Below, in pieces: positions 24,850 to 42,672 of a stretch of 64,000 bases of DNA. Source of the DNA: Actinomycetota bacterium. GTDB taxonomy: Bacteria; Actinomycetota; Aquicultoria; Subteraquimicrobiales; UBA9087. Position 1 is the stretch's first letter. Every line of letters starts with the position of its first letter. Below the pieces are notes generated by a model. The model did not search any database. It had not been told where the DNA came from and saw nothing but the letters and a program-made list of their open reading frames with translations. The translations under genes were made by a program, and so were the position numbers. The stretch lies in assembly GCA_030019215.1 (NCBI GenBank), contig JASEEZ010000005.1:1-64000 (forward strand), given 5' to 3'.

Positions 24850-24879
24850 TAAGAAAATTCTCGAGTGTGCCGATATAAT
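24850..24879 (+). promoter_or_regulatory. Sigma28/WhiG-like promoter 1
   Basis: TAAG (24850-24853) - N15 (AAAATTCTCGAGTGT) - GCCGATATAAT. Confidence 0.65.
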
Positions 24880-24891
24880 TTGTGATACGAG

Positions 24892-25452
24892 GTGAGCCCT
24901 TTGCTGGAGCGTTTTCGCCCTGATGGTTATCACGATTCCATATTCGATGTTGATATGGAGGAACTGAAGAGGGGAGGAATCACTGGTCTGGTAGTTGATC
25001 TGGACAACACACTGGTTCCCCGTTATGAGCGGGAGGCCCCTGAACAGGTTCACAAGTGGCTTGAGGGGGTCATTGAGAGGGGTTTTAAGGTCTGCATCGT
25101 TTCCAATAATTGGGCTGGGAGGGTAAAGACCATAGCTGATGAACTTGGTCTATCCTTGGTAGCCCCGGCTGGCAAGCCTCGAAGTGGTGCCTTTGTCCAG
25201 GCCATGGAGATTTTGGGTACCTCTCGCTCTCAGACGGCGGTCATAGGAGACCAGTTGTTTACCGATATTTTGGGGGGCAACCTGGCTGGCTTGGTGACCA
25301 TTTTGGTCGTTCCTATAAGTCCGCGGGAGCCCTTGCACACCAGGATTTTGCGACGGTTGGAGAGAATAGTTCTTCGAAGGCTGCAGAAAAAAGATTTGCT
25401 TCGGAAATATCGGGCTTCTTTTCCTGATTCGGGGGGCGGTTTTTGTGTGTAA
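24892..25452 (+). CDS. YqeG family HAD IIIA-type phosphatase
   Basis: 'GLVVDLDNTLVPRYE', 'VCIVSNNW', 'KPRSGAF', 'AVIGDQLFTDILGGNLAGL'. Confidence 0.9.
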   Translation: MSPLLERFRPDGYHDSIFDVDMEELKRGGITGLVVDLDNTLVPRYEREAPEQVHKWLEGVIERGFKVCIVSNNWAGRVKTIADELGLSLVAPAGKPRSGAFVQAMEILGTSRSQTAVIGDQLFTDILGGNLAGLVTILVVPISPREPLHTRILRRLERIVLRRLQKKDLLRKYRASFPDSGGGFCV

Positions 25453-26311
25453 AGTAGATGGAAAGACGAAATTGACGGGGATAATTGGTTATCCCTTGGA
25501 ATACACGCTATCTCCCATCATGCACAATGCTGCCTTCCAACATATGGGTCTTAACTGGTGCTACCTTCCCTTGGTGGTGGAAGAAGCCGATATTTACCGC
25601 GCCCTGGATGGTCTCAAGGCCCTCAACTTTATGGGCATCAATGTCACCATGCCTTACAAGGAGGAGGTAATACCCTTCATGGATGAGATGACTTCCTATG
25701 CACAGATTGTTGGGGCTGTGAACACTATTCATATTCAGGGGGGGAGGCTCGTCGGCTACAACACCGATGGCCGTGGTTTTATCACCTCTCTTCAACAGGA
25801 TGCGAAGTTCGATCCCAAGGGCAAGGGTGTTTTAATCGTGGGTGCCGGCGGAGCCGCTCGGGCGGTGGCGGTCAGCCTGACTTTAGCTGGGTCATCGCGC
25901 ATTATCGTGGTTAATCGAACCCTGGAGAGGGCACAATCTCTGTGCCAGCTTCTTCAGGGCAATTTTCCTTCCTGTGAGGTCAAGGCGATGGATATGGAGG
26001 GAGATCTTTCAGGTGCTTTTTCTCAGGTTGAATTGGTAGTAAATGCGACTCCCATTGGAATGGATCTGGAGAAGAAGGAGGTTCCCATTTCCACGGATTT
26101 TTTGGGCAACCGGCATCTCGTCTGCGATCTTATCTATAAACCGGTGGAAACAAACTTTCTTAAGTTGGCCGGAAAGCGAGGGGCGCGTACCTTAGGCGGC
26201 CTGGGCATGCTCCTGCATCAAGGGGCGGCATCTTTCGAGATTTGGACGAACCTCGATCCTCCTATCAAGGTGATGCGAGAGGCGCTGGAGAAGGGACTGG
26301 GTTTGAAATAG
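25445..26311 (+). CDS. aroE: Shikimate 5-dehydrogenase
   Basis: 'GIIGYPLEYTLSPIMHNAAF', 'GINVTMPYKE', 'VGAVNTI', 'GYNTDGRGF', 'VLIVGAGGAARAVA'. Confidence 0.96.
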   Translation: MCKVDGKTKLTGIIGYPLEYTLSPIMHNAAFQHMGLNWCYLPLVVEEADIYRALDGLKALNFMGINVTMPYKEEVIPFMDEMTSYAQIVGAVNTIHIQGGRLVGYNTDGRGFITSLQQDAKFDPKGKGVLIVGAGGAARAVAVSLTLAGSSRIIVVNRTLERAQSLCQLLQGNFPSCEVKAMDMEGDLSGAFSQVELVVNATPIGMDLEKKEVPISTDFLGNRHLVCDLIYKPVETNFLKLAGKRGARTLGGLGMLLHQGAASFEIWTNLDPPIKVMREALEKGLGLK

Positions 26312-26314
26312 ATC

Positions 26315-27991
26315 ATGGTCAGGGTCAAAAAGAGACTAGGGAAAATTCTAATAGAAGCGGGTCTTATCACTGAGGAACAGTTACAGCAAGCCCTGGAGTC
26401 TCAGGATGGTAAGACGCTGGGACGAACCTTGGTCGATCTTGGCTTCATCACCGAGGCAGATATCGCCGCTACACTGGCAAAACAGATGAGTCTCTCCTTT
26501 GTTGATGTAGGAAACTACGAGATCAATCCCAGTGCGGCCACGATCATCTCTGAGGATATGGCGCGACGCTACACCGTTTTGCCCATAGATTTTGAAGAAG
26601 AGAAGCTGGTGGTGGCCATGGCTGATCCAGCTAACATCTTTGCCATCGATGACTTGCGAATTGTTACTGGTTACGATGTCAAGCCGGTAGTGGCGACCGA
26701 GTCCGACTTGCTGGCGGCCATTAACCAGCATTCCAGGGTTGATAGGGCTGTTGAGCAGGTTGTGGAGAGTATTGCCCCGGAGGTCGAAGCTGAAGTTGCG
26801 GTTCCGGAAAAAGAGGAGGTTGAGGAGGCTAGGGAAGCCCCCATCGTCAAGCTGGTCAATTTGATTCTCACCGAGGCCGTCCGCGATAGGGCCAACGATG
26901 TTCACATCGAGCCTCAGGAGAAGGAGTTGAGGATCAGGTATCGAATTGACGGCGTCCTTCACGAGATAATGAGTTCCCCAAAGAAAGTTCAGAATGGGGT
27001 GATCTCTCGAATCAAGATCATGGCCGGAATGGACATCGCCGAGCGTCGTGTTCCTCAGGATGGTCGCTTTAGTCTGACCGTGGACAAGAAGGAGATCGAT
27101 TTTCGGGTGGCGACTCTTCCCGCCATCCACGGAGAGAAGATCGTTCTCCGCCTCCTGGAGAAGGAAAGCATCATGATGGACCTTGATGAGCTGGGTTTGC
27201 TTCAGGAATCTTACGAGAGGTTCAAGAACTCTTTTACCAAACCCTATGGTGCCATTTTGGTCACCGGTCCTACCGGGTGTGGCAAAACGACCACCCTTTA
27301 CGCGGTATTAAATGTGATAAATACGGTGGAGAGAAACCTGATCACCGTCGAGGACCCGGTAGAATACAGATTAACCGGCGTCAATCAGGTGCAGGTGAAT
27401 CCCAAGGCCGGTTTGACCTTTGCCTCGGCTCTCCGTTCTATATTAAGGAACGACCCCGATGTGGTCATGATAGGGGAGATAAGGGATGGGGAGACGGCTT
27501 TGATTGCTATCGAATCGGCCCTCACCGGCCACTTGGTACTCTCCACACTCCACACCAACGATGCTCCTTCGGCTTTAACCAGGCTTACCGAGATGGGATT
27601 GGAGCCATTCCTAACTTCCTCGGCTGTGGATTGCGTGGTAGCTCAGCGGTTGGCCAGGAGATTGTGCAAGGAGTGCAAGGAGTCCTATAGGCCTTCCCCC
27701 GAGATGCTAAAACGGGTTGGTTTCCCCTCCGCCGAAGGCGGGGTGCCCACCCTTTATAAGGCGAAGGGTTGCAAGAAGTGTAACAACACCGGTTATAAGG
27801 GGAGAATCGGCATCTATGAAACCATGATGGTGAGCGAGACCATCGAGCGACTCACTGTGGAGAGGGCGACAACTGAGCAGATAAAAGAGGTGGCCATTGC
27901 TGAGGGCATGAAGACCCTTCGGGAGGATGGTTTTGAGAAGGTGTGTCTTGGGATTACCTCTCTGGAGGAGATATTGAGGGTCATTGTTTGA
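26315..27991 (+). CDS. pilB: Type IV pilus assembly ATPase PilB/GspE (paralog 1)
   Basis: 'HIEPQEKELRIRYRIDGVLHEI', Walker A GPTGCGKTTT, 'LRNDPDVVMIGEIRDGETA', Cys motif CKECKES..KGCKKCNNTGYKGR. Confidence 0.95.
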   Translation: MVRVKKRLGKILIEAGLITEEQLQQALESQDGKTLGRTLVDLGFITEADIAATLAKQMSLSFVDVGNYEINPSAATIISEDMARRYTVLPIDFEEEKLVVAMADPANIFAIDDLRIVTGYDVKPVVATESDLLAAINQHSRVDRAVEQVVESIAPEVEAEVAVPEKEEVEEAREAPIVKLVNLILTEAVRDRANDVHIEPQEKELRIRYRIDGVLHEIMSSPKKVQNGVISRIKIMAGMDIAERRVPQDGRFSLTVDKKEIDFRVATLPAIHGEKIVLRLLEKESIMMDLDELGLLQESYERFKNSFTKPYGAILVTGPTGCGKTTTLYAVLNVINTVERNLITVEDPVEYRLTGVNQVQVNPKAGLTFASALRSILRNDPDVVMIGEIRDGETALIAIESALTGHLVLSTLHTNDAPSALTRLTEMGLEPFLTSSAVDCVVAQRLARRLCKECKESYRPSPEMLKRVGFPSAEGGVPTLYKAKGCKKCNNTGYKGRIGIYETMMVSETIERLTVERATTEQIKEVAIAEGMKTLREDGFEKVCLGITSLEEILRVIV

Positions 27992-27996
27992 GGTGG

Positions 27997-29667
27997 ATGA
28001 TGGCGATTAAACTCGATGAGCGAATTAAAGATATCTTATTGGATGAAGAGATAGTCACGGCGGAGCAATTGAGTGAGGCCGAGAAGGTTGCGGAGAAGAA
28101 GGACATATCCCTGGTCCAGGTTCTCATCGATAAGGGCTTGATCAACGAAGTTACTTTGGCTTCCGTTCTGGCTAAACAGAGGGGCATTCCCTTTGTCGAC
28201 CTCACCGAATACCAGATCGATGTCAGTGCGGCGGTTACCATCTCTGAGGATATGGCTCGGCGCTACACCGTTTTGCCTCTTAGCTTTGAGGGGAATAAGC
28301 TGGTGGTGGCCATGGCTGATCCAGCTAACATCTTTGCCATCGATGACTTGCGAATCGTTACTGGTTACGATATTAAGCCGGTGGTGACGACCGAGTCCGA
28401 CTTGCTGGCGGTCATCGGTCAGTACTTCAGAGCGGGAGAGGCTGTTGAGGAAGAGATCGAGAAGGCCGCTGAGGGAGAGGTCGCTCTGGAGAAAGTTCGT
28501 GAAGTGGCGGCAGAGGCCCCCATCGTCAAGGTGGTCAATCTGATCATCACCCGCGCTATTCGTGATCGCACCAGCGATATTCATATTGAGCCTCAGGAGA
28601 GGGATTTGAGGGTTAGATATCGAATTGATGGTGTCCTTCATGAGGTTATGCGCTCCCCCAAGCGAATTCAACCGGCTCTTCTCTCCCGCTTTAAGGTTAT
28701 GGCTGGGATGGACATTGCCGAGCACCGAAGGCCTCAGGATGGACATTGCGCTTTGACTGTTGGAGGTAAAGCCTACGATTTCAGGGTGGCGACCCTTCCC
28801 ACGGTCTACGGGGAACGTGTCGTTCTGCGGATTCTGGAAAAGGAGAGTATCCTTTTTAAACTGGAGGATCTGGGGTTTTTGCCTGAGAGCCTGGAGAGAT
28901 TCAAGACCTCCTTTACCAAACCATATGGGGCGATTTTGATAACGGGACCGACGGGAAGCGGTAAGTCTACGACTCTATATGCCACGCTTAACGTGTTGAA
29001 TGTAGCAGAGAAAAACATTGTTACCATTGAGGATCCGGTGGAATATAGGTTGCCCGGGATAAATCAGATTCAGATCAATCCCAAAGCCGGTTTGACTTTT
29101 GCCAGGGGCCTTCGATCGATATTGAGGGCCGCACCCGACATCATCATGGTTGGAGAGATAAGGGATAGGGAGACGGCCCAGATCGCCATCGAGGCTGCTC
29201 TCACGGGGCATCTCGTTTTCAGCACCCTTCACACAAACGATGCCCCGGGTGCCATAACGAGGTTGACTGAGATGGGAATTCCTCCTTTTCTAACAGCATC
29301 GGCTGTGGATTGTGTTCAAGCTCAGCGGCTGGCCAGGAGATTGTGCAGGGAATGCAAGGAGTCCTATGAGCCCACCCCCGAAATGCTGGAGCAGGTCGGA
29401 TTTTCCCCCGATGACAAGGTGCCCACCCTTTATAAAGCGAAGGGCTGTAAGAAGTGCAACAACACCGGCTACAAGGGAAGAATCGGCATCTATGAAATCA
29501 TGATGGTGAGCGAGACCATTGAACGACTCACTGTGGAAAGGGCGACGGCCGAGCAGATAAAAGAGGTGGCCATTGCTGAGGGCATGAAGACCCTTCGGGA
29601 GGATGGTCTTGAGAAGGTGCGTCTTGGGATCACTTCCCTGGAGGAGATATTGAGGGTTGTGGTTTAA
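27997..29667 (+). CDS. pilB: Type IV pilus assembly ATPase PilB/GspE (paralog 2)
   Basis: Same domain order; Walker A GPTGSGKSTT; 'LRAAPDIIMVGEIRDRETA'; start refined to 27997. Confidence 0.94.
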   Translation: MMAIKLDERIKDILLDEEIVTAEQLSEAEKVAEKKDISLVQVLIDKGLINEVTLASVLAKQRGIPFVDLTEYQIDVSAAVTISEDMARRYTVLPLSFEGNKLVVAMADPANIFAIDDLRIVTGYDIKPVVTTESDLLAVIGQYFRAGEAVEEEIEKAAEGEVALEKVREVAAEAPIVKVVNLIITRAIRDRTSDIHIEPQERDLRVRYRIDGVLHEVMRSPKRIQPALLSRFKVMAGMDIAEHRRPQDGHCALTVGGKAYDFRVATLPTVYGERVVLRILEKESILFKLEDLGFLPESLERFKTSFTKPYGAILITGPTGSGKSTTLYATLNVLNVAEKNIVTIEDPVEYRLPGINQIQINPKAGLTFARGLRSILRAAPDIIMVGEIRDRETAQIAIEAALTGHLVFSTLHTNDAPGAITRLTEMGIPPFLTASAVDCVQAQRLARRLCRECKESYEPTPEMLEQVGFSPDDKVPTLYKAKGCKKCNNTGYKGRIGIYEIMMVSETIERLTVERATAEQIKEVAIAEGMKTLREDGLEKVRLGITSLEEILRVVV

Positions 29668-29818
29668 TACCGTTACAACTTTTAGATAGAATCCTTTATC
29701 AACCAACCTGAATCTGTTAGCTGATAAGCAAAAGGCTTGTCCTGAGCTTGTTGAAGGAAAAAAGGTGTTACCCCGCCGATGGCGGGGTGGCATAAGAAAT
29801 AGTTGTAACGGCACTAGT
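29666..29818. mobile_element. MITE-like element B2, TA-flanked
   Basis: TIR TACCGTTACAACTTT ... AGTTGTAACGGCACTA; contains ACCCCGCCGATGGCGGGGT and a 'CTTGTCCTGAGCTTGTTGAAGGA' REP-like unit. Confidence 0.65.
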
Positions 29819-29851
29819 TTTTGGGAATGATCTCGAAAAGGAGGGGGAAAG

Positions 29852-30913
29852 TTGTCTGCTTTGAATGATCTATTGATGGAAGCATTTGAGAAGGGAGCCT
29901 CCGATTTACATCTAACGGTGGGGGTTCCTCCCACCATAAGAGTTCACGGGGTTTTAGTTCATCTCGATCACCCTGTTTTGGCCCAGGAGGATACGAAGGG
30001 GCTTGTTTACAGTATTCTCAACGATGAACAGAGAGAGCGCCTTGAGAAGAATTGGGAGTTGGATTTCTCTTATTCTCTTCCTGGTAAGGCACGCTTTAGG
30101 GTGAATATCTATTTTCAAAGGGGAAGCTGTGCTGCCGCCTTCCGTTTAATCCCCGCGGAGATAAGGGGATTGGAGGAGTTGGGTCTTCCTTTGGCCCTCG
30201 AGGGTTTAGCTAAGAGACCGAGGGGTTTCGTTCTGGTCACGGGACCCACGGGTAGTGGGAAGACTACCACCCTAGCCTCTCTCATCGATATAATTAATGA
30301 AACTCAGGAGGTGCACATAATTACGATAGAGGACCCGATCGAATACCTGCACCAGCATAAAAAGGCTATTGTTAATCAGAGGGAGGTTGGATCCGATACT
30401 AAGGCATTTGCCAGCGCCTTAAAATATGTGCTCAGACAGGACCCCGATGTCATCTTGATTGGTGAGATGCGGGACCTCGAGACCATCTCTGTGGCCTTGA
30501 CTGCGGCCGAGACGGGACACCTCGTCTTTGCTACCCTCCATACTCAAGATTCCCCGCAGACCATCGATCGAATCATCGATGTCTTTCCCCCTCATCAACA
30601 ACAACAGGTGCGAATTCAGTTGGCCGGCACGCTTCAGGGTATAATCTCTCAACAGCTTCTCCCCACGAGCGATGGGAAGGGGAGGATAGTCGCCGTTGAG
30701 GTTCTCACACCCACCCCGGCTGTTCGGAACATGATCAGGGAAGCCAAGACACACCAGATCTACAATGCCATTCAAACTGGACAGAAGTATGGCATGCAGA
30801 CGATGGATCAAGCCCTGGCCGGTCTTTATAGAAGGGGAAAGATAACCTATGAGATAGCCCTGGAAAGAGCGATAGATCCTCAGGATTTGAGGCAGCTCTT
30901 GGGCAAAGCATGA
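29852..30913 (+). CDS. pilT: Type IV pilus twitching ATPase
   Basis: 'MEAFEKGASDLHLTVGVPPTIRVHG', 'GPTGSGKTTTLASLID', 'LRQDPDVILIGEMRDLETI', 'AATLHTQDSPQTIDRIIDVFPPHQQ'-type motif; TTG start. Confidence 0.96.
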   Translation: MSALNDLLMEAFEKGASDLHLTVGVPPTIRVHGVLVHLDHPVLAQEDTKGLVYSILNDEQRERLEKNWELDFSYSLPGKARFRVNIYFQRGSCAAAFRLIPAEIRGLEELGLPLALEGLAKRPRGFVLVTGPTGSGKTTTLASLIDIINETQEVHIITIEDPIEYLHQHKKAIVNQREVGSDTKAFASALKYVLRQDPDVILIGEMRDLETISVALTAAETGHLVFATLHTQDSPQTIDRIIDVFPPHQQQQVRIQLAGTLQGIISQQLLPTSDGKGRIVAVEVLTPTPAVRNMIREAKTHQIYNAIQTGQKYGMQTMDQALAGLYRRGKITYEIALERAIDPQDLRQLLGKA

Positions 30914-31115
30914 TGAGTTGACAGTTCACAGTTGACAGAGAGCAGAAATTAGGAATTAGCATAGAGTGGAGAGCCCCGCATCTTGCGGGGTAAACTCCGA
31001 GCACAGAGCGTAGAGACAAAAGATTTTTCTCTAAGCTCTAAGCTCCGAGCTCTAAGCTGACAGACGAATTTCGAATAACGAATAGCTGCATCTGACGGCT
31101 GACAGAATTAGGAAA
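30914..31115. repeat. Heptanucleotide quasi-repeat array with fold-back core (H8)
   Basis: agttgac-agttcac-agttgac-agagagc-agaaatt-aggaatt-agcatag-agtggag; hairpin ctccgagcacagagcgtagagacaaaagatttttctctaagctctaagctccgag. Confidence 0.8.
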
Positions 31116-31217
31116 GAAGGAATTTCGCCTCTTGGGTCGAAGCAATTAACTTCAGGTGGCGAAGGTATGGAGAGAAAAATTGTCGGTGAACTGCCACTCA
31201 TCGATTGAATCGAGGAT

Positions 31218-32444
31218 GTGATTAAATTGGCGGTCACTTTTACTTACAAGGTGAGAGACAGACAGGGCAAAATCATCACGGGCTCCATCGAGGCTGATAG
31301 CCAGACAACCGTTGTTACCAAGTTGCGTCAGATGGGTTACATCGTTGTGGGTATCGCCGAGAAGGCGGAGATAGCTCGCGGAGCCGGTTTAAGCTTCAAG
31401 GGTTTGAAGAGAATAAAATCCAAGGATCTGACCATCTTCAGCCGGCAGTTTTCCACGATGATAAACTCGGGCCTCTCCATCACCAAGTGCCTGGGAATTC
31501 TGGCCGAGCAGACGGAAAACCCCAAATTGGCTGATGTCGTTGGCGAGTTGCAACGGGATGTAGAGGGTGGCAAAGCACTCTCTGAGGCTCTGGCAAAATA
31601 CCCTAAAGTGTTCCCACCCATATTTACAAATATGGTTAGGGCCGGAGAGACCGGTGGTGTCCTAGATGAGGTGCTTGCCAGGGTAGCCGAGCATTTCGAG
31701 AAGGAAGGGGCTTTGAAAGGTAGGATCAAATCGGCTATGGCTTACCCCACGGCCATGTTTTGCTTTTGCATGCTCATCATCTTCGTTATGATTACCTTCA
31801 TCGTTCCCATGTTTGTGAGGATGTTTGCCACCCTGGGGGGAACACTCCCCCTGCCCACGCAGATCCTCCTCTCCATAAGCAACTTCATTCGCGGTTTCTG
31901 GTATGTGATCCTGGCGACGATAGTTGGGTTGGGCTATGGTTATCGTCGCTTTGTGGCCACCGACTTTGGGCGGCTCCGGGTTGACAGGCTGAAGCTGAGG
32001 TTGCCTGTCTTTGGTACCCTTGCCCGAAAGCTCTCCATAGCCAGATTCAGTCGCACCCTGGGAACTTTGATCTCCAGCGGCGTGCCCATTCTGCAGGCGC
32101 TGGATATTGTCGGTGACACCGCTGGCAATGCCGTCGTGTCCAATGCGGTGAGGCAGACTCGATCCAGCATCAAGGAGGGGGAGACCATAGCCAGACCATT
32201 GGGGGAAAGCGAGGTATTTCCCCCAATGGTTGTTCAGATGATCGCCGTGGGCGAGGAAACGGGGGCTCTCGATGGAATGTTGCAGAAGATAGCCGATTTC
32301 TATGAGGAAGAGGTGTCGGCCACGGTGGATGCTCTGACCTCCTTGATTGAGCCCCTGATGATAGCGTTTATGGGGGTTGTTGTTGGAGGGATGATCGTAG
32401 CACTGTATATGCCGATGTTCAGCGTCATCACCTTGATTAAATAA
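31218..32444 (+). CDS. pilC: Type IV pilus inner membrane platform protein
   Basis: 'FSRQFSTMINSGLSITKCLGIL', 'YPTAMFCFCMLIIFVMITFIVPMF', 'MVVQMIAVGEETGALDGMLQKIADFYEEEV'. Confidence 0.95.
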   Translation: MIKLAVTFTYKVRDRQGKIITGSIEADSQTTVVTKLRQMGYIVVGIAEKAEIARGAGLSFKGLKRIKSKDLTIFSRQFSTMINSGLSITKCLGILAEQTENPKLADVVGELQRDVEGGKALSEALAKYPKVFPPIFTNMVRAGETGGVLDEVLARVAEHFEKEGALKGRIKSAMAYPTAMFCFCMLIIFVMITFIVPMFVRMFATLGGTLPLPTQILLSISNFIRGFWYVILATIVGLGYGYRRFVATDFGRLRVDRLKLRLPVFGTLARKLSIARFSRTLGTLISSGVPILQALDIVGDTAGNAVVSNAVRQTRSSIKEGETIARPLGESEVFPPMVVQMIAVGEETGALDGMLQKIADFYEEEVSATVDALTSLIEPLMIAFMGVVVGGMIVALYMPMFSVITLIK

Positions 32445-32449
32445 GTTGT

Positions 32450-32480
32450 TAAAGTTTTTCTCGGGGCGTGCCGATATAAA
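32450..32480 (+). promoter_or_regulatory. Sigma28/WhiG-like promoter 2 (upstream of riboswitch and pilA)
   Basis: TAAA - N16 (GTTTTTCTCGGGGCGT) - GCCGATATAAA. Confidence 0.6.
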
Positions 32481-32502
32481 AAGCGGAATGGTATTTTGAC
32501 AA

Positions 32503-32583
32503 AAAGAGAAGGGCAAACCCACCGTGAGGTGGGGGCGCAAAGCTGCGGGCCCCGCAGGATGCGGGGTAGCTGGGCTGCCTCAG
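32503..32583 (+). promoter_or_regulatory. Cyclic di-GMP-I (GEMM-I) riboswitch aptamer
   Basis: GGGCAAACCCACC-GTGA-GGTGGGGGCGCAAAGCTGCGGGCCCCGC-AGGAT-GCGGGGTAGCTGGGCTGCC matches GEMM-I hallmarks (GGGCAAACC, GNRA tetraloop, CGCAAAGC, GGTAGC-GGG-TGCC). Confidence 0.93.
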
Positions 32584-32606
32584 ATTTTACCCAGATTTCT
32601 TAAGTG

Positions 32607-32662
32607 GAAAGGAAAAGCAAGCCCCGCAGCTCAATATACAATTCGGCTTGTTTTTTCCTTTT
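32607..32662 (+). terminator. Intrinsic terminator / expression platform of the GEMM-I riboswitch
   Basis: AAAGGAAAAGCAAGCC ... GGCTTGTTTTTTCCTTT hairpin with T-tract between aptamer and pilA. Confidence 0.75.
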
Positions 32663-32726
32663 CAAAGAAGGAGGTGGGCGTGAGACATAGAATATTTAAA
32701 AAAACACGGGAAGGAGGTGAAGAAAA

Positions 32727-33083
32727 GTGTTTAAGCTTTTAAAGAGAGAAAAGGGCTTTACACTCGTTGAACTCATGGTCGTTGCATTGATAATCGGTAT
32801 ATTGGTCGGTATAGCCGTGCCCGTGTTTAACGTCGCCCGAGCGACCGCTCAGAAGAGGACCTGTCAGGCGAACCTGAGGACGATTGACGGGGCGATAACG
32901 ACCTACAATGCCACCGAGGAGACCTATCCTCCTGCTGGCGAGATTGGTAGCGGTCATGTGCTGATAACGCAGCATTATCTCAAGACGGTACCCAAGTGCC
33001 CATCGACAGCTACCAACAATCAGTATACTGTCGTGGCGGGCGATCCATCCTACGCCACATGTCCAAATGGTCACACGTATTGA
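32727..33083 (+). CDS. pilA: Major type IV pilin (prepilin)
   Basis: Class III signal 'KREKG|FTLVELMVVALIIGILVGIAVPVF'; GTG start after SD GGAGG. Confidence 0.93.
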   Translation: MFKLLKREKGFTLVELMVVALIIGILVGIAVPVFNVARATAQKRTCQANLRTIDGAITTYNATEETYPPAGEIGSGHVLITQHYLKTVPKCPSTATNNQYTVVAGDPSYATCPNGHTY

Positions 33084-33097
33084 TGCTTGGGTGGGTT

Positions 33098-33130
33098 AAA
33101 AGCCCCCCGACACGTCGGGGGGCTTTTTTT
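33098..33130 (+). terminator. Intrinsic terminator after pilA
   Basis: AAAAGCCCCCCGA-CACG-TCGGGGGGCTTTTTTT. Confidence 0.92.
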
Positions 33131-33345
33131 CATTCGACATCCGTCATCGGACAAGGGTAAATCGCATAGAAGGGTTCGAGGATTCAAGGATTCAAGCCGT
33201 ATAGCTTTCTAAGATTTTCATCCTTCAACTCCGTTCAGGATCACCTTGAGCCTGTCGAAAGGTGAGCTCAGTCGAAGCCTCGAAAGGTCACTTGACCTCT
33301 CGACTCCTGGACCCCTTGAATCCTAAAATAAAGTTTTCTTTGCGC
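33131..33345. repeat. Repeat cluster (H9): TTCAAGGA units plus REP-like 'TTGAGCCTGTCGAAAGG'
   Basis: gggttcgaggattcaaggattcaag; ccgttcaggatcaccttgagcctgtcgaaaggtgag; gaccccttgaatcctaaa. Confidence 0.65.
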
Positions 33346-33402
33346 TTTGCTCACTATTTTTGGAGAAGAGCTATATAATCCAACCAAAGAGAGCAGTGAT
33401 TA

Positions 33403-34188
33403 GTGGCAACTGTAGCGGTATCAATTATCCTTTTCATATTCGGTCTGGCGGTCGGCAGTTTCTTGAACGTCTGCATCTGGCGTCTGCCGCGGGGAGAGTC
33501 CATTATCTCCCCGGTCTCCCACTGCCCTCATTGCGGCCGGCCTATTCGAGTCAGGGATAACATTCCACTGCTCAGCTACCTGATGTTGAAGGGGAGGTGT
33601 CGCTATTGCGGGGGTAGAATCTCCCCCCAATATTTTCTAGTTGAGCTGGCAACCGCGGTTTTATTCGTCCTTGTCTTTCTGAAGCACGGCTTGAGTTGGA
33701 ATCTGGTTTCCTCCCTTTTCTTTGTCTCCGTCCTTCTTTTGGTGGCCGCGATCGATCTGAAGCACCAGATCATCCCAAATAAGGTGATTCTGCCGGCCAT
33801 GGCGGTTCAATTCATCTTGATACTCTCTCCCCCTATCTATCACAATGAGCTGAAGGGAGCGATTCCCTATCTGGCCGGCTTTTTCATCGGTGGCGGTATT
33901 CTTTTATTTGCTGCCTTGGTTTCTCCCCTTATCTTTGGAAAGGAGGGGATGGGGGGCGGAGATATAAAGCTTGGAGCTTTTATCGGCCTGACCTTGGGCT
34001 GGCACATCCTTGTTGCTCTCTTCGTGGGCTTTCTGACTGGGGCCCTGGTTGGCCTCACGCTCATCGCCTTGAAACGCAAGACCCGAAAGGATCTTATCCC
34101 TTTCGGGCCATCCCTCTCTCTTGGAGGGCTGGCGGCGCTGTTTCTAGGTCCTCAGATTTTCTCATTCTACCTCGGTTTATTGCCTTAA
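33403..34188 (+). CDS. pilD: Prepilin peptidase / N-methyltransferase
   Basis: 'GSFLNVCIWRLPRGESIISP.SHCPHCGRPIRVRDNIPLLSYL.LKGRCRYCGG', 'AIDLKHQIIPN', 'GMGGGDIKLGAFIG'; GTG start. Confidence 0.95.
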   Translation: MATVAVSIILFIFGLAVGSFLNVCIWRLPRGESIISPVSHCPHCGRPIRVRDNIPLLSYLMLKGRCRYCGGRISPQYFLVELATAVLFVLVFLKHGLSWNLVSSLFFVSVLLLVAAIDLKHQIIPNKVILPAMAVQFILILSPPIYHNELKGAIPYLAGFFIGGGILLFAALVSPLIFGKEGMGGGDIKLGAFIGLTLGWHILVALFVGFLTGALVGLTLIALKRKTRKDLIPFGPSLSLGGLAALFLGPQIFSFYLGLLP

Positions 34189-34229
34189 ATTTAATTTACC
34201 GGTCTTTTGGGTGATGGTAAAATAAGGAT

Positions 34230-34751
34230 ATGAACTTTCCATCACGCAACGAGAAGGCTTTCACTCTGGTCGAGATCATCCTGGCCCTCGCCATTTTTGG
34301 CATCCTGGTGACGGTAGCCATGCTGGGCTTGGACTATTTTCAGACCTCCAAGCGCCTGGATGCTGCTCTTCGAGAAATCGCCTCCGATATCAGGGAGGCC
34401 CAGTCCCGAGCCATGGCCGAGCAGATGTACTACGGGATACATTTCATCGAGGCCGAGAACATATACTTCATTCACCGTGACACCACCACGACAACCTTGT
34501 TTGATACCGATCCCATACCCTGGGGACCCCACGGGGAGACGACAGCGGCCCTTACCGAGGGCATTGTTTTTGAGCGGGCTGGGCCCAACAACACCGATCC
34601 AATTACCTTTAACGATAACTGGTATGATGCTTTGGTCTTTGAACCTTCCGGTTCCCCAAAAAGGCCGGGTAGCGTCTACCTTCAGAACGAACGCAACAAG
34701 GAACGTTACCTCACCGTGGGAATGGAAACGGGGCGGGTCAGGCTTTACTGA
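34230..34751 (+). CDS. Minor prepilin (GspH/FimT-like)
   Basis: 'NEKA|FTLVEIILALAIFGILVTVAMLGL'. Confidence 0.85.
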   Translation: MNFPSRNEKAFTLVEIILALAIFGILVTVAMLGLDYFQTSKRLDAALREIASDIREAQSRAMAEQMYYGIHFIEAENIYFIHRDTTTTTLFDTDPIPWGPHGETTAALTEGIVFERAGPNNTDPITFNDNWYDALVFEPSGSPKRPGSVYLQNERNKERYLTVGMETGRVRLY

Positions 34752-34767
34752 TCAAGGTGAGGGATCG

Positions 34768-35181
34768 ATGAGATTCAAGGAGGAAAAGGGTATCTCCATA
34801 ATTGAGGTGATGATAGCCATAACGATCCTGGCTCTCGCTCTCTTGCCGATGATGGCCATGTTCGAGACCGGTATTTCCAGCACCACGGTGGCTGGCGAAA
34901 TCACCATCGCCACTCAGCTTGCCAACGACAGAATCGAGGAAATCAGAAATCACTCCTTTCTTGATGTTTACAATACTTATAAGGATGAAGTGGTGGAGAA
35001 TTACGGCACCATCCCCGATTTCCCTCGCTTCCGGAGGGTGACCGTGGCTGAGTACGTGGACGAGAATCTTGATCCCGTGGCGGGACCAACGGATCTTCTG
35101 AGGGTGACCGTCACTCTTTACTGGCATTTCAGGGGTAGCGAAAAGTCCCATTCCGAAGTGACCTTGATAGCACGCCGCTAG
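34768..35181 (+). CDS. Minor prepilin (PilV-like)
   Basis: 'EEKG|ISIIEVMIAITILALALLPMMAMFETG'; start refined to ATG 34768. Confidence 0.83.
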   Translation: MRFKEEKGISIIEVMIAITILALALLPMMAMFETGISSTTVAGEITIATQLANDRIEEIRNHSFLDVYNTYKDEVVENYGTIPDFPRFRRVTVAEYVDENLDPVAGPTDLLRVTVTLYWHFRGSEKSHSEVTLIARR

Positions 35182-35271
35182 TGCCGTTACAACTTTAAGA
35201 TAGAACACTTGTCAGGTAACCTTGTGTCTCTTTGGTAGGAAGAAATAAAAAGAATAGTTGTAACGGTACTA
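35179..35271. mobile_element. MITE-like element B1, TA-flanked, 93 bp
   Basis: TIR TAGTGCCGTTACAACT ... AGTTGTAACGGTACTA; overlaps the stop codon of the upstream prepilin gene. Confidence 0.75.
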
Positions 35272-35381
35272 GGTTAGACCTCCGAAAACATGCAGTTGTC
35301 CGCCCCAGCGAGGCGGCCACTGCTCGGCTCTTCTCGTGAATGGGTGAGGTTTCTTGTCTGAGAACGCAAAAGTTCGGTTAA
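35272..35381 (+). repeat. Family A element copy 5 (left end abutted by MITE B1)
   Basis: GGTTAGACCTCCGAAAACATGCAGTTGTCCGCCCCAGCGAGGCGGCCACTGCTCGG ... GAGAACGCAAAAGTTCGGTTA. Confidence 0.7.
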
Positions 35382-35983
35382 GAATTTGCCGGGAGGAAAG
35401 TGGAATGTCCCTGACGGAGGTGCTCGTCTTCGCACTTCTGTTGACGCTGGTTCTCGCCGCTGTTTACTCCTTGCTTACCAGCGGAATCGGTTCCTGGGGG
35501 AAGGGGGAAACCGCGATTGAACTTCAGCAGAACGCTCGCCTGGCCATGAATAAGATGGTCGAGGAGATCAGAAAGGCACACACCATTGTAAATGCCGAGA
35601 ATGTCAGGGGCACTAGTTATGACTTTCCCACGAATGGTTCTGAGATATCCTTTGTTAATGAGGATTCCGATAAAGATGGCGACTACGATGTCTACGATAA
35701 GATAATAAAATATCGTATTGGGGGAAGCTCGGGCGCTACGCTCGTGAACTGGGTTTTTAATCCTCCGCCGAAGACCAAACCCGGTTATTTCGCTCTCGCT
35801 GAATATGTCGAGGAGCTCAATTTCAGATTCTTTGATGCTAATTCGGTTGAGATCCTGCCCACGAATGATATCTCTCTTACCAACTATTATGACAATGTTA
35901 CCTGCATCGAGATAAGCATCGTCGTGAGCAAGGACAAGATGCGAAAGCAATTGACCTCCAAGGTACGGCTAAGGAACAGGTAG
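35354..35983 (+). CDS. Minor prepilin (PilW-like)
   Basis: 'REESG|MSLTEVLVFALLLTLVLAAVYSLLTSG'; start uncertain, N-terminus overlaps repeat. Confidence 0.8.
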   Translation: MSENAKVRLRICREESGMSLTEVLVFALLLTLVLAAVYSLLTSGIGSWGKGETAIELQQNARLAMNKMVEEIRKAHTIVNAENVRGTSYDFPTNGSEISFVNEDSDKDGDYDVYDKIIKYRIGGSSGATLVNWVFNPPPKTKPGYFALAEYVEELNFRFFDANSVEILPTNDISLTNYYDNVTCIEISIVVSKDKMRKQLTSKVRLRNR

Positions 35984-36036
35984 CACTCTCCTTAAAAATT
36001 TGATTGAATATTGGTAGAGAAACCTTGCTTGGGCTA

Positions 36037-36237
36037 TTGACAAGCTCGATTGACAAATGGTTCGGACAAATGTCTTGAAGACACGCGGTCGGCCTGGTCG
36101 TGGTTTAGCTAAAACTTATCTCTTGGCCGCCGCTCGGGTCTCGCCCCACCGCAGACTTTTGGTTTTCTAAAGCTTTTTCTGGCGGGGCTCCGACACGGTC
36201 TTCTCGACACATGGTCCTCACCCCGCCAATGGCGAGG
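36037..36237 (+). repeat. Family A structured element copy 2
   Basis: TTGAAGACACGCGGTCGGCC ... TTGGCCGCCGCTCGGGTCTCGCCCC ... GGCGGGGCTCCGACACGGTCTTCTCG. Confidence 0.72.
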
Positions 36238-36276
36238 TATAAACCAGCTCACTGGCGACCAATTCTACTGGTGGTC

Positions 36277-36306
36277 TAAATAATTCTCTAAAGATACCGA
36301 TATAAA
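36277..36306 (+). promoter_or_regulatory. Sigma28/WhiG-like promoter 4
   Basis: TAAA - N15 (TAATTCTCTAAAGAT) - ACCGATATAAA. Confidence 0.6.
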
Positions 36307-36320
36307 GATTGGGTGACGAT

Positions 36321-37739
36321 GTGATCCACAAAAAAAGTTCAAAGAATTTACTCTCTCTGCTGGGGGCTGAAAGGGGAGTGGCCTTTGCCACTGCGCTGGT
36401 TGTTCTTCTTGTTTTGTCGCTTCTGGGAACAGCTCTTCTGATCGTTGCCCGAAAGGAAGTGGGGATCTCTCTTCGAGGAAAGCAGGCAAACCAAGCTTTT
36501 CACATTGCTGAAGCCGGCGTCGAGTACGGATTAAACCAACTCGTCCAGAGCAGTGGCGCCTGGAGAGGGCCCATTACACAGGATCTGGCCTCGGCCGATT
36601 CCACGGAGACCATCGGGAGTTTTACCGTTGCCGCAATTTTTGAGGGCCTGGATGGTGGCCTGGCGACGTACACCCTCGAATCCACGGGTACGGTGACGAA
36701 TTCCAGCGCCATCCGCAGGTTAACCGTCAAAGTCGAGCAGACCACACCTCTCTGGAGCTACATCCTTTTTCTTAACGATAAGACCACCACCGATTACGAT
36801 TTTATCTCCTATAAATCTAGCGGTGTTTACTATTCTGATGAGACCACCGGTAGCGTTCATTCCAACGATGACCTCTACGTTTACTCCATTGCAAATGGTC
36901 ATCCCATTTTCAACGGACCGATAACCTACGTTAACAGCTATGTTTTGGGCGGAAGTGGAACTCCTTATTATAGTCCGTCGCCTCCTAAAAAGGTGACAGC
37001 GATCCAGTTTCCCACTCCCGATTATGCGCTTCTGAAGTCAAAGGCGAGTGAAGACGACAATCTGGGTTCCTATTCGGGAGATGTATCGGTCAAGTTGATT
37101 AAGGGAACGGCCGCGAACAACGATGGTACGATTGAGATCGTGACCACTGGCACCCAAACAAAAGAGTTGGGGTCAAAAGAAAACGTTTTGTACGTTGAAA
37201 ATGGCAATGTTTATGTTCAGGGAACTCTTGATGGTCGGCTGACCATCGTGGCCAGGGGCAGTTCTGCCGGCGATGTGTACATTGTGGACAATGTGAGATG
37301 CGCGGATACGAATTTGGCCACCAGTGATGATATGTTGGGCTTGATCGCTGAAAACGATGTCGAGATATTTGAACCCGGGGGAACTCCATGGGGAAAGGGT
37401 CCTCATTCTGCTTGGAAGGGGGGAACGGCTGCCGACGATAAAGTTTACGTCGATGCCCTGATGTTCGCTCAGAATGGGCATATCAGTTATCAGGGTGCTG
37501 GTTCTTGGGGAAGAGATTTGCTTTTTGTCAGCGGTGCCCTCATCCAAAACAGGGACACGGCCACCATCTCTAAGGGTGTTATGGGAGGTGGAGGTGGAGG
37601 TACGCATGTCATGGGCGGAAAAACGGGGTATTTGAAGCGCTACAACTTCGACGAGCGGCTTGCCTATACGCAGCCTCCGTACTTTTTCAAGCCCGATAGT
37701 TCCCGGTACAGGATCTCTTCTTGGGGAGAAGGTTCGTAA
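36321..37739 (+). CDS. PilX-like large pilus protein lacking E5
   Basis: 'ERGVAFATALVVLLVLSLLGTALLIVARKEVGISLRGKQANQAFHIAEAGVEYGLNQLV'; long extracellular domain; GTG 36321 or TTG 36309. Confidence 0.75.
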   Translation: MIHKKSSKNLLSLLGAERGVAFATALVVLLVLSLLGTALLIVARKEVGISLRGKQANQAFHIAEAGVEYGLNQLVQSSGAWRGPITQDLASADSTETIGSFTVAAIFEGLDGGLATYTLESTGTVTNSSAIRRLTVKVEQTTPLWSYILFLNDKTTTDYDFISYKSSGVYYSDETTGSVHSNDDLYVYSIANGHPIFNGPITYVNSYVLGGSGTPYYSPSPPKKVTAIQFPTPDYALLKSKASEDDNLGSYSGDVSVKLIKGTAANNDGTIEIVTTGTQTKELGSKENVLYVENGNVYVQGTLDGRLTIVARGSSAGDVYIVDNVRCADTNLATSDDMLGLIAENDVEIFEPGGTPWGKGPHSAWKGGTAADDKVYVDALMFAQNGHISYQGAGSWGRDLLFVSGALIQNRDTATISKGVMGGGGGGTHVMGGKTGYLKRYNFDERLAYTQPPYFFKPDSSRYRISSWGEGS

Positions 37740-37990
37740 CTTGACTTTTGCGTTTTTAAAATTATGAGCAAGCGATCGGTTTTGGCAAAGGCCAGACCTC
37801 CGAAAACACGCAGTTGTCCGTCCCAGCGAGGCGTCCACTGCTCGGCTCTCAGCCTCGCTCCCCGCCTGCGGCGGGACCGTGCCCGCTCGGCCTCCGAGAC
37901 GGTTTTCTTGAGGCCTAACCTTTGCCCTAAGCCAATTTCAGTTATTTATTGTGAATGATCTTTCTTGACCGAGAACGCAAAAGTTCGGTT
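37738..37990 (+). repeat. Family A structured element copy 4
   Basis: Outer IR AACTTGACTTTTGCGTTTTT / GAACGCAAAAGTTCGGTT; next IR GGCAAAGGCCAGACCTCCGAAAAC / GTTTTCTTGAGGCCTAACCTTTGCC. Confidence 0.75.
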
Positions 37991-38030
37991 CGTAAGTTAG
38001 CAAACGGATATAATTAAAGGAGTTTTGCCC

Positions 38031-38062
38031 ATCTCCGAGAATTTAGTCTCGGAGATTTTTTG
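38031..38062 (+). terminator. Intrinsic terminator
   Basis: ATCTCCGAGA-ATTTAG-TCTCGGAGATTTTTT. Confidence 0.85.
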
Positions 38063-38083
38063 GAAGCCGCTCTCAGCAGTGCT

Positions 38084-38113
38084 TAAGTTTCTCACCAGCG
38101 GTGCCGATATAAT
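38084..38113 (+). promoter_or_regulatory. Sigma28/WhiG-like promoter 3
   Basis: TAAG - N15 (TTTCTCACCAGCGGT) - GCCGATATAAT; about 20 nt before ATG 38132. Confidence 0.65.
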
Positions 38114-38131: not shown

Positions 38132-38542
38132 ATGAGAGTTTTTTTGAAGGATGAAAGGGCCTTCAGCCTGCTGGAGGTCATGGGGGCGTTAACCATCATA
38201 GCCATCATTCTGATTCCCATCTACATCATGTTTTATGAGGGAATCCGCTATGTTGGTATGTCCAAGAACCAGAACCAGGCGGCTAGCTATGGCCAGGAGA
38301 GGGTGGAGCACATCAGGAACATGACTTATACAAACATCACCGAGACCAACCTACCTGATGAGACTCAAACTTTGGGTAATATGGTGTTCACGAACCACGT
38401 GGATGTGGTCTCTTCCCCCACCGAGGTAGAAGGAGCGGACCCAAACATCAAGAAAATAGTCGTGACCGTCTCCTGGGTTGAGAATGAGGCCACTAAAACC
38501 GTTTCTCTAGCGACTCTTCGGACGAAAACACTGGAGGACTGA
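38132..38542 (+). CDS. Minor prepilin (PilV-like, set 2)
   Basis: 'KDERA|FSLLEVMGALTIIAIILIPIYIMFYEG'. Confidence 0.82.
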   Translation: MRVFLKDERAFSLLEVMGALTIIAIILIPIYIMFYEGIRYVGMSKNQNQAASYGQERVEHIRNMTYTNITETNLPDETQTLGNMVFTNHVDVVSSPTEVEGADPNIKKIVVTVSWVENEATKTVSLATLRTKTLED

Positions 38543-38550
38543 AGGGAGCC

Positions 38551-39255
38551 ATGCCGACCTTCTTTAAGAAAGATAGGGGATACACTCTCGTTGAGTTGCT
38601 CGTGGCGGTGGGAATTCTCTGGATTGTTCTGGGCGGGATCTACACCCTTTTTATCGGTGGGGAGGATATCTGGGACATTGGGGACAGGCAGATTGAGGCT
38701 CAGCGAAGCGCCAGGGTGGCGATGCTCAGGATAGCTCAGGAGCTCAGAGAGTGCTATGAGGTAACGGCTTTGTCCGAGTATAGCCTGACACTCAGGGGGA
38801 TACAGGTGAGCGGGGAGGTTTTGGCACCGGATACATCCACTAATCCTCTTCGAACTTTTGGCCCGTCGGCTCATAGTCCTTGGATACAGGAGGCGGCGCC
38901 GACCATCTATCGGGCCGGGACACCTCGCCCATCCAGTGACTATTCTGTGGATTACGCGGATGGGAAGGTCACCTTCAACGACGATGTGACCGATGAGGTT
39001 ACCGCCGATTACACCCACGATGAGACCCTGACCATCTCCCTTTCGAATGGGTCTTTGATCAGGACTACCAGCACCACGAGCACTGTCCTGGCAGAATATA
39101 TCACGAACGAGTCGGCATCCACCTCTGTCTTTGTCGGAGATAAGGCGCTTCCCGATACCAGATTGATCACCACTATTCTGATAGTGGACAGGGATCCGAC
39201 GAAGCGCCCGGCGGCCTACACACTTGAGAACAAGTGCAGGTTGAGGAAGAAATGA
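38551..39255 (+). CDS. Minor prepilin (PilW-like, set 2)
   Basis: 'KDRG|YTLVELLVAVGILWIVLGGIYTLFIGG'. Confidence 0.83.
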   Translation: MPTFFKKDRGYTLVELLVAVGILWIVLGGIYTLFIGGEDIWDIGDRQIEAQRSARVAMLRIAQELRECYEVTALSEYSLTLRGIQVSGEVLAPDTSTNPLRTFGPSAHSPWIQEAAPTIYRAGTPRPSSDYSVDYADGKVTFNDDVTDEVTADYTHDETLTISLSNGSLIRTTSTTSTVLAEYITNESASTSVFVGDKALPDTRLITTILIVDRDPTKRPAAYTLENKCRLRKK

Positions 39256-40730
39256 AACGGTGGTGTGAGATGATTGATGGGCTGAAGCGCAGGATAATCG
39301 AAGAGGGAGGGTATACGCTCGGGTTTACCCTGGGTGTGGTCTCGATCCTGACGATCCTTGGGGCCGGTCTTCTTTTGATGGTCGGTCACGAGATGACCAT
39401 GATCGCCAAGCACGCCGACTCCACCCGTGCCTATTACCTGGCCGAGTCCGGAATAAACCACGCCCTCTGGAATCTGGACAAAGGCCTTTCGGGTGCTGTG
39501 GGAAGCGAGACCACTCAAACCGCTTTGGGAGCCGGCAGTTACTACACCACCTATGAATCAAATACGCGCTTGCTCACCTCGGTGGGAACCGTTGGCAGTG
39601 TGAGCAGGAGGATAAGGGTCCGCACCAAGCAAGAGGAGTTGCCCCTGTCGCTTCAGAGGGCGGTGACCGCCGCCAAGTCGAACGACATTCCTGGGAACAA
39701 GGATCCGGATGCCGAGGATAATGTCTTCATCTGCAACGATACTACTGACACGGAGAGAGTTCTCATCTGTGGTAGCAAAGGCACCTGGACTATTCATGGG
39801 TGGTTATTTAATCTCCAGGAGACGACCTCGAGTTCAAACTATCTGGGCTGGGCTTATAATGTGAAGGGTGTCGAGCCGACCAAATACAGATATGTGGCTG
39901 GCTCCAATGAATACCCCGAGGCTCACTGGAAGGACTGGGAGAAAGACAAGGGGACGGACATTGCTCCGGAGCTACCCAACTTCCGGACGGCCCCCTACGA
40001 AGAGGAGATTCGGACTGCCAAGACCACCGGGACGGCTGGGGATACGACTTGGACGGGAATCAAGACCCTTCAGGGGGGCGAGAAATACTACTTCAAGAGC
40101 AATTTGACCATCGACGGTGCGACGATTACTTGCGATAGCACCGAGACCGCGGCGGTAATCGTCGCTTACGGAAATATCACCATTCGGGATTCCACCATCG
40201 GCGACGCCGCTGGTGGCAAGATCAAGATCATCGCCGGGGGCTGGGATGATGACGATCCTGGAACCAACGTGGATGCCTTGACCATCGAGGGGAATAACAA
40301 TTCTAAATATACCTATCTGGGCAAGGACATTGAGCTCTACAGCAACGCTCAGACCAGGGTGAATGACCACGTCTATCGTTTAGCGGAGGGTTGCTCCAGC
40401 ATGTTGCTTTCAAGATACACTCTTTACATCGAGTCCAGCTACAGCAGCGGCCCCGCGGGCACCGGTTATAATATCGACCTCGAGGGAGTGGTCTTCTCCC
40501 GGGAGGGCATACGCTTTCGAACCGAGGGGGGCGGTCGTCGAGTGCGGATTCGGGGAAGCATCATCGCCGGTGATTTGCAGAACCCCGATGGTCGACTCCA
40601 CTTCGGTAATATCAAGAAGCAGCTGTGGCTAGTTTACGACAGGGGTGCCATCCCCGAGGCGGGTGTGAAGAGCGCTTTCGGGGCGATCTCGGGTGTGACG
40701 CTGGACTATACCACCTGGCGGGAAGATTGA
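39252..40730 (+). CDS. PilX-like large pilus protein lacking E5 (set 2)
   Basis: 'EEGGYTLGFTLGVVSILTILGAGLLLMVGHEMTMIAKHADSTRAYYLAESGINHALWNL'; start refined to 39252. Confidence 0.75.
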   Translation: MKRWCEMIDGLKRRIIEEGGYTLGFTLGVVSILTILGAGLLLMVGHEMTMIAKHADSTRAYYLAESGINHALWNLDKGLSGAVGSETTQTALGAGSYYTTYESNTRLLTSVGTVGSVSRRIRVRTKQEELPLSLQRAVTAAKSNDIPGNKDPDAEDNVFICNDTTDTERVLICGSKGTWTIHGWLFNLQETTSSSNYLGWAYNVKGVEPTKYRYVAGSNEYPEAHWKDWEKDKGTDIAPELPNFRTAPYEEEIRTAKTTGTAGDTTWTGIKTLQGGEKYYFKSNLTIDGATITCDSTETAAVIVAYGNITIRDSTIGDAAGGKIKIIAGGWDDDDPGTNVDALTIEGNNNSKYTYLGKDIELYSNAQTRVNDHVYRLAEGCSSMLLSRYTLYIESSYSSGPAGTGYNIDLEGVVFSREGIRFRTEGGGRRVRIRGSIIAGDLQNPDGRLHFGNIKKQLWLVYDRGAIPEAGVKSAFGAISGVTLDYTTWRED

Positions 40731-40932
40731 CCCTGAGGTTGAGCGAAAATTTGCCGATAATAGAGGTGAAGTGGAAAAAATTGCCCGAAAAAAAGGGAAA
40801 TTGGGATTTTTAACGAATAGGTACTTAAAATTCATACGGAATTGACCATTGCCCCGCCCTAAAGGAATAGCGGAAGAACTGGATTTACCTTTGTGGTAGA
40901 ATCGTTGAGACTACGATCGCAGGAGGGTTGGT

Positions 40933-42057: not shown

Positions 42058-42665
42058 TCAACATAAACCTGCTTCCCCCGGAAGTTCGCGAGAAGAGAAA
42101 GGCTGAGAAGGTATTCTTCTATACGATCGTTGGAGTAGTGACACTGGTGATCATCCTGGGCGGTGTTTATGGTTATTATTCCTGGCTAGTGGGCCTGGAG
42201 GAGCGACAGCTGGCCAGTATCCAAGCGGAGACCCAGAAGTTCAGCGAGGCGGTAAAGGAGTATGAAATATACGAGAAGAAAAAGGCCGAGTTTCAGGCGA
42301 GAAAGGAAATTGTGGACAAGGCCATGGCCGGCGAGGTGCCCTGGCATAAGATTTTGAACGGAATCAGCATGGTCATTCCCAGCGATGTCTGGTTGACCTC
42401 CTTCAGCGGTAGTGAGGGTGGGTTGAATCTGGCCGGTTTTGCCGTAGATTATGCCTTCGACGAACCCGATTTCGGACACAAGCCGGTTGCCAAATGGATG
42501 GTGCGTTTGGGAGAGGTGAAGGGGATCGTCGACATTTGGCTTACCAGCTCTTCTAAGGGTGACGTTGAAGGGCAGCCGGCGATACAGTTTGGGACAACCA
42601 CCAAGTTAAGTGTTGAGGAGATTGCCCCTGCAACTGCCCCGCCGGCAAAGACTACAGGGGAGTAA
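42054..42665 (+). CDS. pilN: PilN-like pilus assembly protein
   Basis: 'MININLLPPEVREKRKAEK' + TM. Confidence 0.9.
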   Translation: MININLLPPEVREKRKAEKVFFYTIVGVVTLVIILGGVYGYYSWLVGLEERQLASIQAETQKFSEAVKEYEIYEKKKAEFQARKEIVDKAMAGEVPWHKILNGISMVIPSDVWLTSFSGSEGGLNLAGFAVDYAFDEPDFGHKPVAKWMVRLGEVKGIVDIWLTSSSKGDVEGQPAIQFGTTTKLSVEEIAPATAPPAKTTGE

Positions 42666-42672
42666 AGGACGA

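What the first reader, a model, noticed from the sequence alone, without database searches (positions are those of the whole stretch)
24850..38113. Four sigma28/WhiG-like promoters with near-identical architecture in front of type IV pilus transcription units
Seen directly: TAAG-N15-GCCGATATAAT (24850), TAAA-N16-GCCGATATAAA (32450), TAAA-N15-ACCGATATAAA (36277) and TAAG-N15-GCCGATATAAT (38084). All four carry TTCTC just inside the spacer. They precede yqeG-aroE-pilB-pilB-pilT-pilC, the riboswitch-pilA unit, the set 1 PilX-like gene and minor-pilin set 2. Established knowledge: the FliA/WhiG (sigma28) consensus is TAAA-N15-GCCGATAA. Inference: a dedicated T4P regulon under a sigma28-family factor. 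The conserved TTCTC spacer and the TATAA extension of the -10 may be lineage-specific.
Basis: partly seen in the sequence, partly recalled or inferred. Interest (0 to 1): 0.85.

Follow-up and report, generated by a model that had tools for sequence, protein, structure and literature searches.

The report
WhiG-type promoters driving type IV pili
Four near-identical DNA start signals in front of the pilus genes of an uncultured, deep-branching actinobacterium match those read by the sigma factor WhiG; the genome also carries WhiG and its c-di-GMP-triggered inhibitor RsiG, and the main pilin gene has a second c-di-GMP sensor in its RNA leader, so one signalling molecule probably gates pilus production twice.

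Summary
In detail: all four TAAR-N15/16-RCCGATATAA sites are at the stated coordinates, far above chance. The sigma28/WhiG reading is strongly supported. The genome encodes one WhiG orthologue (xerC-whiG-rpsB; E=1e-94 to Streptomyces WhiG) and a single-motif RsiG anti-sigma (Pfam RsiG, E=4e-17), but no FlgM or flagellin was found. Both proteins occur across nearly the whole class (34/36 and 33/36 genomes). Core hexamers and the N15 spacing recur upstream of pilA, pilT, pilD, minor pilins and pilM in relatives, and at two T4P sites in a same-genus genome the core is kept while neighbouring bases drift. "TTCTC" in the spacer is not conserved, and the TATAA extension looks genus-level. The regulon is wider than T4P: rsiG itself, a diguanylate cyclase and a third minor-pilin set also follow such sites. 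[quoted passage not shown] What that paper does not mention: in 8 of the loci examined the WhiG promoter is followed by a c-di-GMP-I riboswitch before pilA, with a terminator/antiterminator suggesting an OFF switch. This predicts a coherent double c-di-GMP gate on one transcript. No transcription data were available.

The parts
24850..24879 (+). WhiG/sigma28-type promoter P1 (TAAG-N15-GCCGATATAAT) before yqeG-aroE-pilB-pilB-pilT-pilC
   Evidence: identical in same-genus genome G001 while the adjacent upstream intergenic DNA diverges
32450..32480 (+). WhiG/sigma28-type promoter P2 (TAAA-N16-GCCGATATAAA) before the riboswitch-pilA unit; highest PWM score in the window
   Evidence: syntenic pilA promoters in relatives
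36277..36306 (+). WhiG/sigma28-type promoter P3 (TAAA-N15-ACCGATATAAA) before a PilX-like gene
   Evidence: in G001 TAAA and ACCGATATA are kept while the spacer changes
38084..38113 (+). WhiG/sigma28-type promoter P4 (TAAG-N15-GCCGATATAAT) before minor-pilin set 2
   Evidence: conserved in G001 with TAAG changed to CAAG
40734..40762 (+). weak candidate fifth WhiG-type site (TGAG-N15-GCCGATAATA) before pilMNO, at the position where same-order relatives have a consensus site
   Evidence: PWM scan; relatives' pilM sites; in G001 TAAAG...GCCAATAATA
32503..32583 (+). c-di-GMP-I-GGC riboswitch aptamer in the pilA leader
   Evidence: Rfam RF03167, 64.4 bits against cut-off 59
32541..32549 (+). aptamer P3 5' strand AGCUGCGGG, predicted antiterminator arm 1
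   Evidence: 9-bp complement to 32623-32631; inferred
32613..32656 (+). predicted intrinsic terminator (AAAAGCAAGCC...GGCUUG-UUUUUU) with antiterminator arm 2 CCCGCAGCU at 32623-32631
   Evidence: inferred
24892..25452 (+). yqeG-like HAD phosphatase (start more likely a TTG near 24902)
   Evidence: Pfam HAD/PGP phosphatase
25445..26311 (+). aroE
   Evidence: Pfam
26315..27991 (+). pilB1 with MshEN domain
   Evidence: Pfam T2SSE, MshEN
27943..29667 (+). pilB2 with MshEN domain
   Evidence: Pfam
29852..30913 (+). pilT
   Evidence: Pfam T2SSE
31218..32444 (+). pilC
   Evidence: Pfam T2SSF
32727..33083 (+). pilA (major pilin candidate)
   Evidence: Pfam N_methyl
33403..34188 (+). pilD prepilin peptidase
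   Evidence: Pfam A24
36309..37739 (+). PilX-like gene (start probably GTG near 36321)
   Evidence: Pfam PilX_N
38132..40730 (+). minor-pilin set 2 (three genes)
   Evidence: Pfam N_methyl, PilX_N
40933..43293 (+). pilM-pilN-pilO
   Evidence: Pfam

Best explanation
The four sites are promoters of a WhiG (sigma28-family) holoenzyme. RsiG, bound to c-di-GMP, holds WhiG inactive. When c-di-GMP falls, WhiG is released and transcribes the T4P units together with rsiG itself (feedback) and a diguanylate cyclase gene. On the pilA transcript a c-di-GMP-I riboswitch directly downstream of the promoter probably terminates transcription when c-di-GMP is high, so pilA is gated twice in the same direction. 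Shown here: the sites, their conservation, the WhiG and RsiG genes, the aptamer, and the predicted terminator with its complementary antiterminator arm. Inferred: promoter use by WhiG, RsiG-WhiG binding in this organism, and the OFF direction.
For: WhiG: 262 aa between xerC and rpsB, E=1e-94 to Streptomyces WhiG, in 34/36 class genomes. RsiG: Pfam PF22802 E=4e-17, matches solved RsiG of Streptomyces (6e-8) and Rubrobacter (8e-6), in 33/36 class genomes, motif E(X)3S(X)2R(X)3H(X)3D; the His variant binds c-di-GMP in Conexibacter RsiG (PMC8325347). rsiG itself follows a TAAG-N15-GCCGATAATG site, identical in G001. No FlgM or flagellin found. In T4P upstream regions of relatives 19/208 carry the motif; 180 anagrams of CCGATA average 0.42, with the next best at 6, and spacing peaks at one value. 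Spacer drift with -35/-10 kept in G001. Riboswitch before pilA in 13 loci, 8 of them with the promoter pattern upstream. In the window the pre-terminator fold equals the antiterminator fold.
Against: No transcription start, binding or expression data exist for this uncultured organism. The -10 extension TATAAT could also serve sigmaA. The terminator and antiterminator are thermodynamic predictions; in two of the five leaders folded the antiterminator is 6-8 kcal/mol less stable than the free fold before the terminator arm is made, and four relatives (family f3) have the aptamer but no clear terminator. About half of the 40 genome-wide core matches are expected by chance.
Confidence: 0.87

Rival explanations
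1. The sites are ordinary sigmaA promoters with a TATAAT -10, and the TAAR and GCCG parts are coincidental or bind an activator.
For: TATAAT/TATAAA is present in all four sites in the window.
Against: No TTGACA-like hexamer lies 17 bases upstream; the position is taken by TAAGAA, AAAGTT, TAAATA and TAAGTT (read). In relatives the conserved part is TAAR-N15-NCCGATA while the TATAA part is not kept. A WhiG gene and its anti-sigma are present.
Confidence: 0.06
2. WhiG reads the promoters, but the pilA riboswitch is an ON switch, so the two c-di-GMP inputs oppose each other, making a pulse or band-pass on pilA.
For: c-di-GMP promotes T4P in some bacteria (for example riboswitch-controlled pili in C. 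difficile, own knowledge); PilB1 carries an MshEN domain that may be activated by c-di-GMP. The direction is inferred from folding only.
Against: In the window and several relatives the complement of the aptamer P3 5' strand lies in the terminator 5' half, so ligand-stabilised P3 would free the terminator.
Confidence: 0.2
3. The four sites arose by recent duplication of one regulatory segment and are not independently maintained.
For: Near-identical cores.
Against: Spacers and flanks are unrelated between sites, and syntenic sites occur in other families of the class with different spacers.
Confidence: 0.02

Closest known systems
[quoted passage not shown]
   Same: WhiG sigma, single-motif RsiG, flagellar-type promoters within the T4P cluster and before DGC/PDE genes.
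   Different: Uncultured class from the UBA9087-related clade; His in place of Gln in the motif; promoter also before rsiG; c-di-GMP-I riboswitch between promoter and pilA, not mentioned in that paper; -10 extended to TATAA in this genus.
Streptomyces RsiG-WhiG (sporulation)
   Same: Orthologous sigma and anti-sigma; whiG neighbourhood xerC-whiG-rpsB (Streptomyces synteny is own knowledge).
   Different: Streptomyces RsiG is twin-motif and the regulon is sporulation, not pili.
c-di-GMP riboswitch control of pili and flagella in Clostridioides difficile (PMC6200980)
   Same: c-di-GMP riboswitches control surface-structure genes.
   Different: Unrelated lineage; no RsiG/WhiG step; riboswitch classes and directions there (own knowledge) differ from that predicted here.

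Membership tests
WhiG/FliA (sigma28) promoter | -35 TAAA(GTTT), about 15 bases, -10 GCCGATAA | tested here: met
   position 8 of the -10 is T, not A, in the window sites
WhiG/FliA (sigma28) promoter | cognate sigma28-family gene in the genome | tested here: met
WhiG/FliA (sigma28) promoter | transcription start a few bases after the -10 and dependence on the sigma | not testable with these tools
   uncultured organism, no RNA data
RsiG single-motif anti-sigma | family profile and E(X)3S(X)2R(X)3[QH](X)3D motif | tested here: met
   His variant functional per PMC8325347
RsiG single-motif anti-sigma | c-di-GMP-dependent WhiG binding | not testable with these tools
   needs purified proteins
RsiG-WhiG T4P regulon (Rubrobacter type) | WhiG promoters in the T4P cluster and before DGC/PDE genes | tested here: met
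   T4P; one GGDEF gene 49 bases after a site
c-di-GMP-I riboswitch | aptamer above curated threshold in a 5' leader | tested here: met
c-di-GMP-I riboswitch | ligand is c-di-GMP rather than cGAMP | not tested
   sequence AAGGGC suggests G at the discriminating position, from memory only

The most novel reading that the evidence does not exclude
A class-wide, two-stage c-di-GMP gate on a single pilus gene: an anti-sigma releases or holds the sigma at the promoter and, about 50 bases downstream, a riboswitch decides whether the same transcript is finished, with the anti-sigma gene itself in the regulon. I know of no earlier case of a c-di-GMP-controlled sigma and a c-di-GMP riboswitch stacked on one leader.
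Probability: 0.55. Interest if true: 0.65.

Novelty: new variant of a known kind. Interest (0 to 1): 0.52.

Why it matters
It extends the RsiG-WhiG control of type IV pili from Rubrobacter to a deep-branching uncultured actinobacterial class, which supports pili as an early target of the switch. It also shows one second messenger apparently acting at initiation and at elongation on the same gene. That gives a concrete system for asking why a cell would sense the same molecule twice (sharper threshold, lower leak, or memory through rsiG feedback).

Tried and rejected
The exact Gln version of the RsiG motif as a DNA pattern gave only chance hits in wrong frames; rsiG was found instead as the gene behind a promoter hit because this class uses His. 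TTCTC as a recognition element was rejected. FlgM and flagellin were searched and not found. A site at C3:21166 is conserved in G001 but has no gene in frame behind it.

Full report
Observation. The four sites are exactly as described. Allowing two mismatches, the N15 and N16 patterns each match 6 times in the window against about 0.7 expected, and none of 100 shuffles reaches 6. The -10 nonamer alone is weakly enriched; the pairing with TAAR at N15/16 is what stands out.

Sigma factor. The genome (1.63 Mb, 94% complete) has seven region-4 matches. One is a 262-aa protein between xerC and rpsB whose best solved relative is Streptomyces WhiG (E=1e-94, next best FliA at 1e-51). It is present in 34 of 36 genomes of the class. 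FlgM and flagellin were not found, so WhiG has no visible flagellar role here.

Anti-sigma. Behind one of the genome-wide motif hits lies a 97-aa ORF. It matches Pfam RsiG (E=4e-17) and the solved RsiG proteins of Streptomyces and Rubrobacter. It has one c-di-GMP motif with His in place of Gln, as do nearly all single-motif RsiGs of the class that I read. The 2021 paper reports that the His version from Conexibacter binds c-di-GMP. RsiG is in 33 of 36 class genomes. The rsiG promoter is identical in the same-genus genome G001.

Regulon. TAAR-N15/16-NCCGATA occurs 40 times in the genome against 20 in the reversed-pattern control; the tighter TAAAG form occurs 204 times against 38 across the class. 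Candidates with plausible spacing to a gene include rsiG, a GGDEF protein (49 bases downstream), a third minor-pilin set at C49:70114 (CAAG variant), an NlpC/P60 hydrolase, an ABC substrate-binding protein and secreted proteins of unknown family. About half of all core matches are expected by chance, so the non-T4P members are individually uncertain.

Conservation. In 20 loci of relatives I took regions upstream of T4P genes. 19 of 208 contain the core motif; the 180 anagrams of CCGATA average 0.42, and the spacing histogram peaks sharply at one value. Sites lie before pilA, pilT, pilD, minor pilins and pilM. Against G001 the pilX site keeps TAAA and ACCGATATA while its spacer, TTCTC included, changes; the yqeG site is unchanged although the DNA just upstream has drifted. 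A weak fifth site in the window precedes pilMNO.

Riboswitch. A c-di-GMP-I-GGC aptamer starts 24 bases after the pilA -10. Aptamers of this clan precede pilA in 13 of the loci examined, 8 with the promoter pattern just upstream. In the window a terminator follows whose 5' half holds CCCGCAGCU, a 9-base complement of the aptamer P3 5' strand AGCUGCGGG. Several relatives show the equivalent pairing with changed bases on both sides (AGCCAC with GUGGCU). Before the terminator 3' arm is made, the window's minimum-energy fold is the antiterminator; afterwards the two states are nearly equal in energy. Ligand binding should tip this to termination, an OFF switch. This is inference from folding, and four family-f3 leaders lack a clear terminator.

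Placement. The same switch and T4P target are described for Rubrobacter (PMC8325347). The window's closest named relative is UBA9087, from a clade of uncultured actinobacterial classes. The word riboswitch does not occur in the 2021 paper, and none of the four papers in the library that hold RsiG, WhiG and riboswitch together is about pilus genes by its title or abstract. Novelty therefore rests on the stacked gate and the new class, not on the WhiG-T4P link.

Noticed in passing
L274 (G009), L275 (G011), L276/L214 (G020): Twin-motif RsiG proteins of 176-185 aa in two families of the class. The canonical-looking motif is the C-terminal one, the reverse of Streptomyces RsiG, which suggests an independent duplication.
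   Followed up: partly
window 26315-29667: Both PilB ATPases carry MshEN domains; PilB1 motif I (RLGKILIEAGLITEEQLQQALESQ) fits the published c-di-GMP-binding consensus, motif II lacks the Arg. A possible third c-di-GMP input on the same pili.
   Followed up: partly
L155:8138-11481 (C49): Third minor-pilin set (PilV-, PilW-, PilX-like) outside the T4P cluster, behind CAAG-N15-GCCGATATAAA.
   Followed up: partly
L232:2160-2240 (G012): c-di-GMP-I aptamer before pilA reads AAGAGC instead of AAGGGC; from memory this position separates cGAMP from c-di-GMP sensing.
   Followed up: no
L152 (C3:21166): A consensus site conserved in G001 with no ORF behind it and a convergent gene downstream; possible small RNA.
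   Followed up: no
window 15635-15816: 6S RNA (Rfam RF00013).
   Followed up: no
window 37780-37930 and L155 around 9340-9500: Similar-looking intergenic stretches (GGCCAGACCTCCGAAAACACGCAG-type) recur near minor-pilin genes; possible small repeat element. The window copy before set 2 falls in a stretch that did not align to G001.
   Followed up: no
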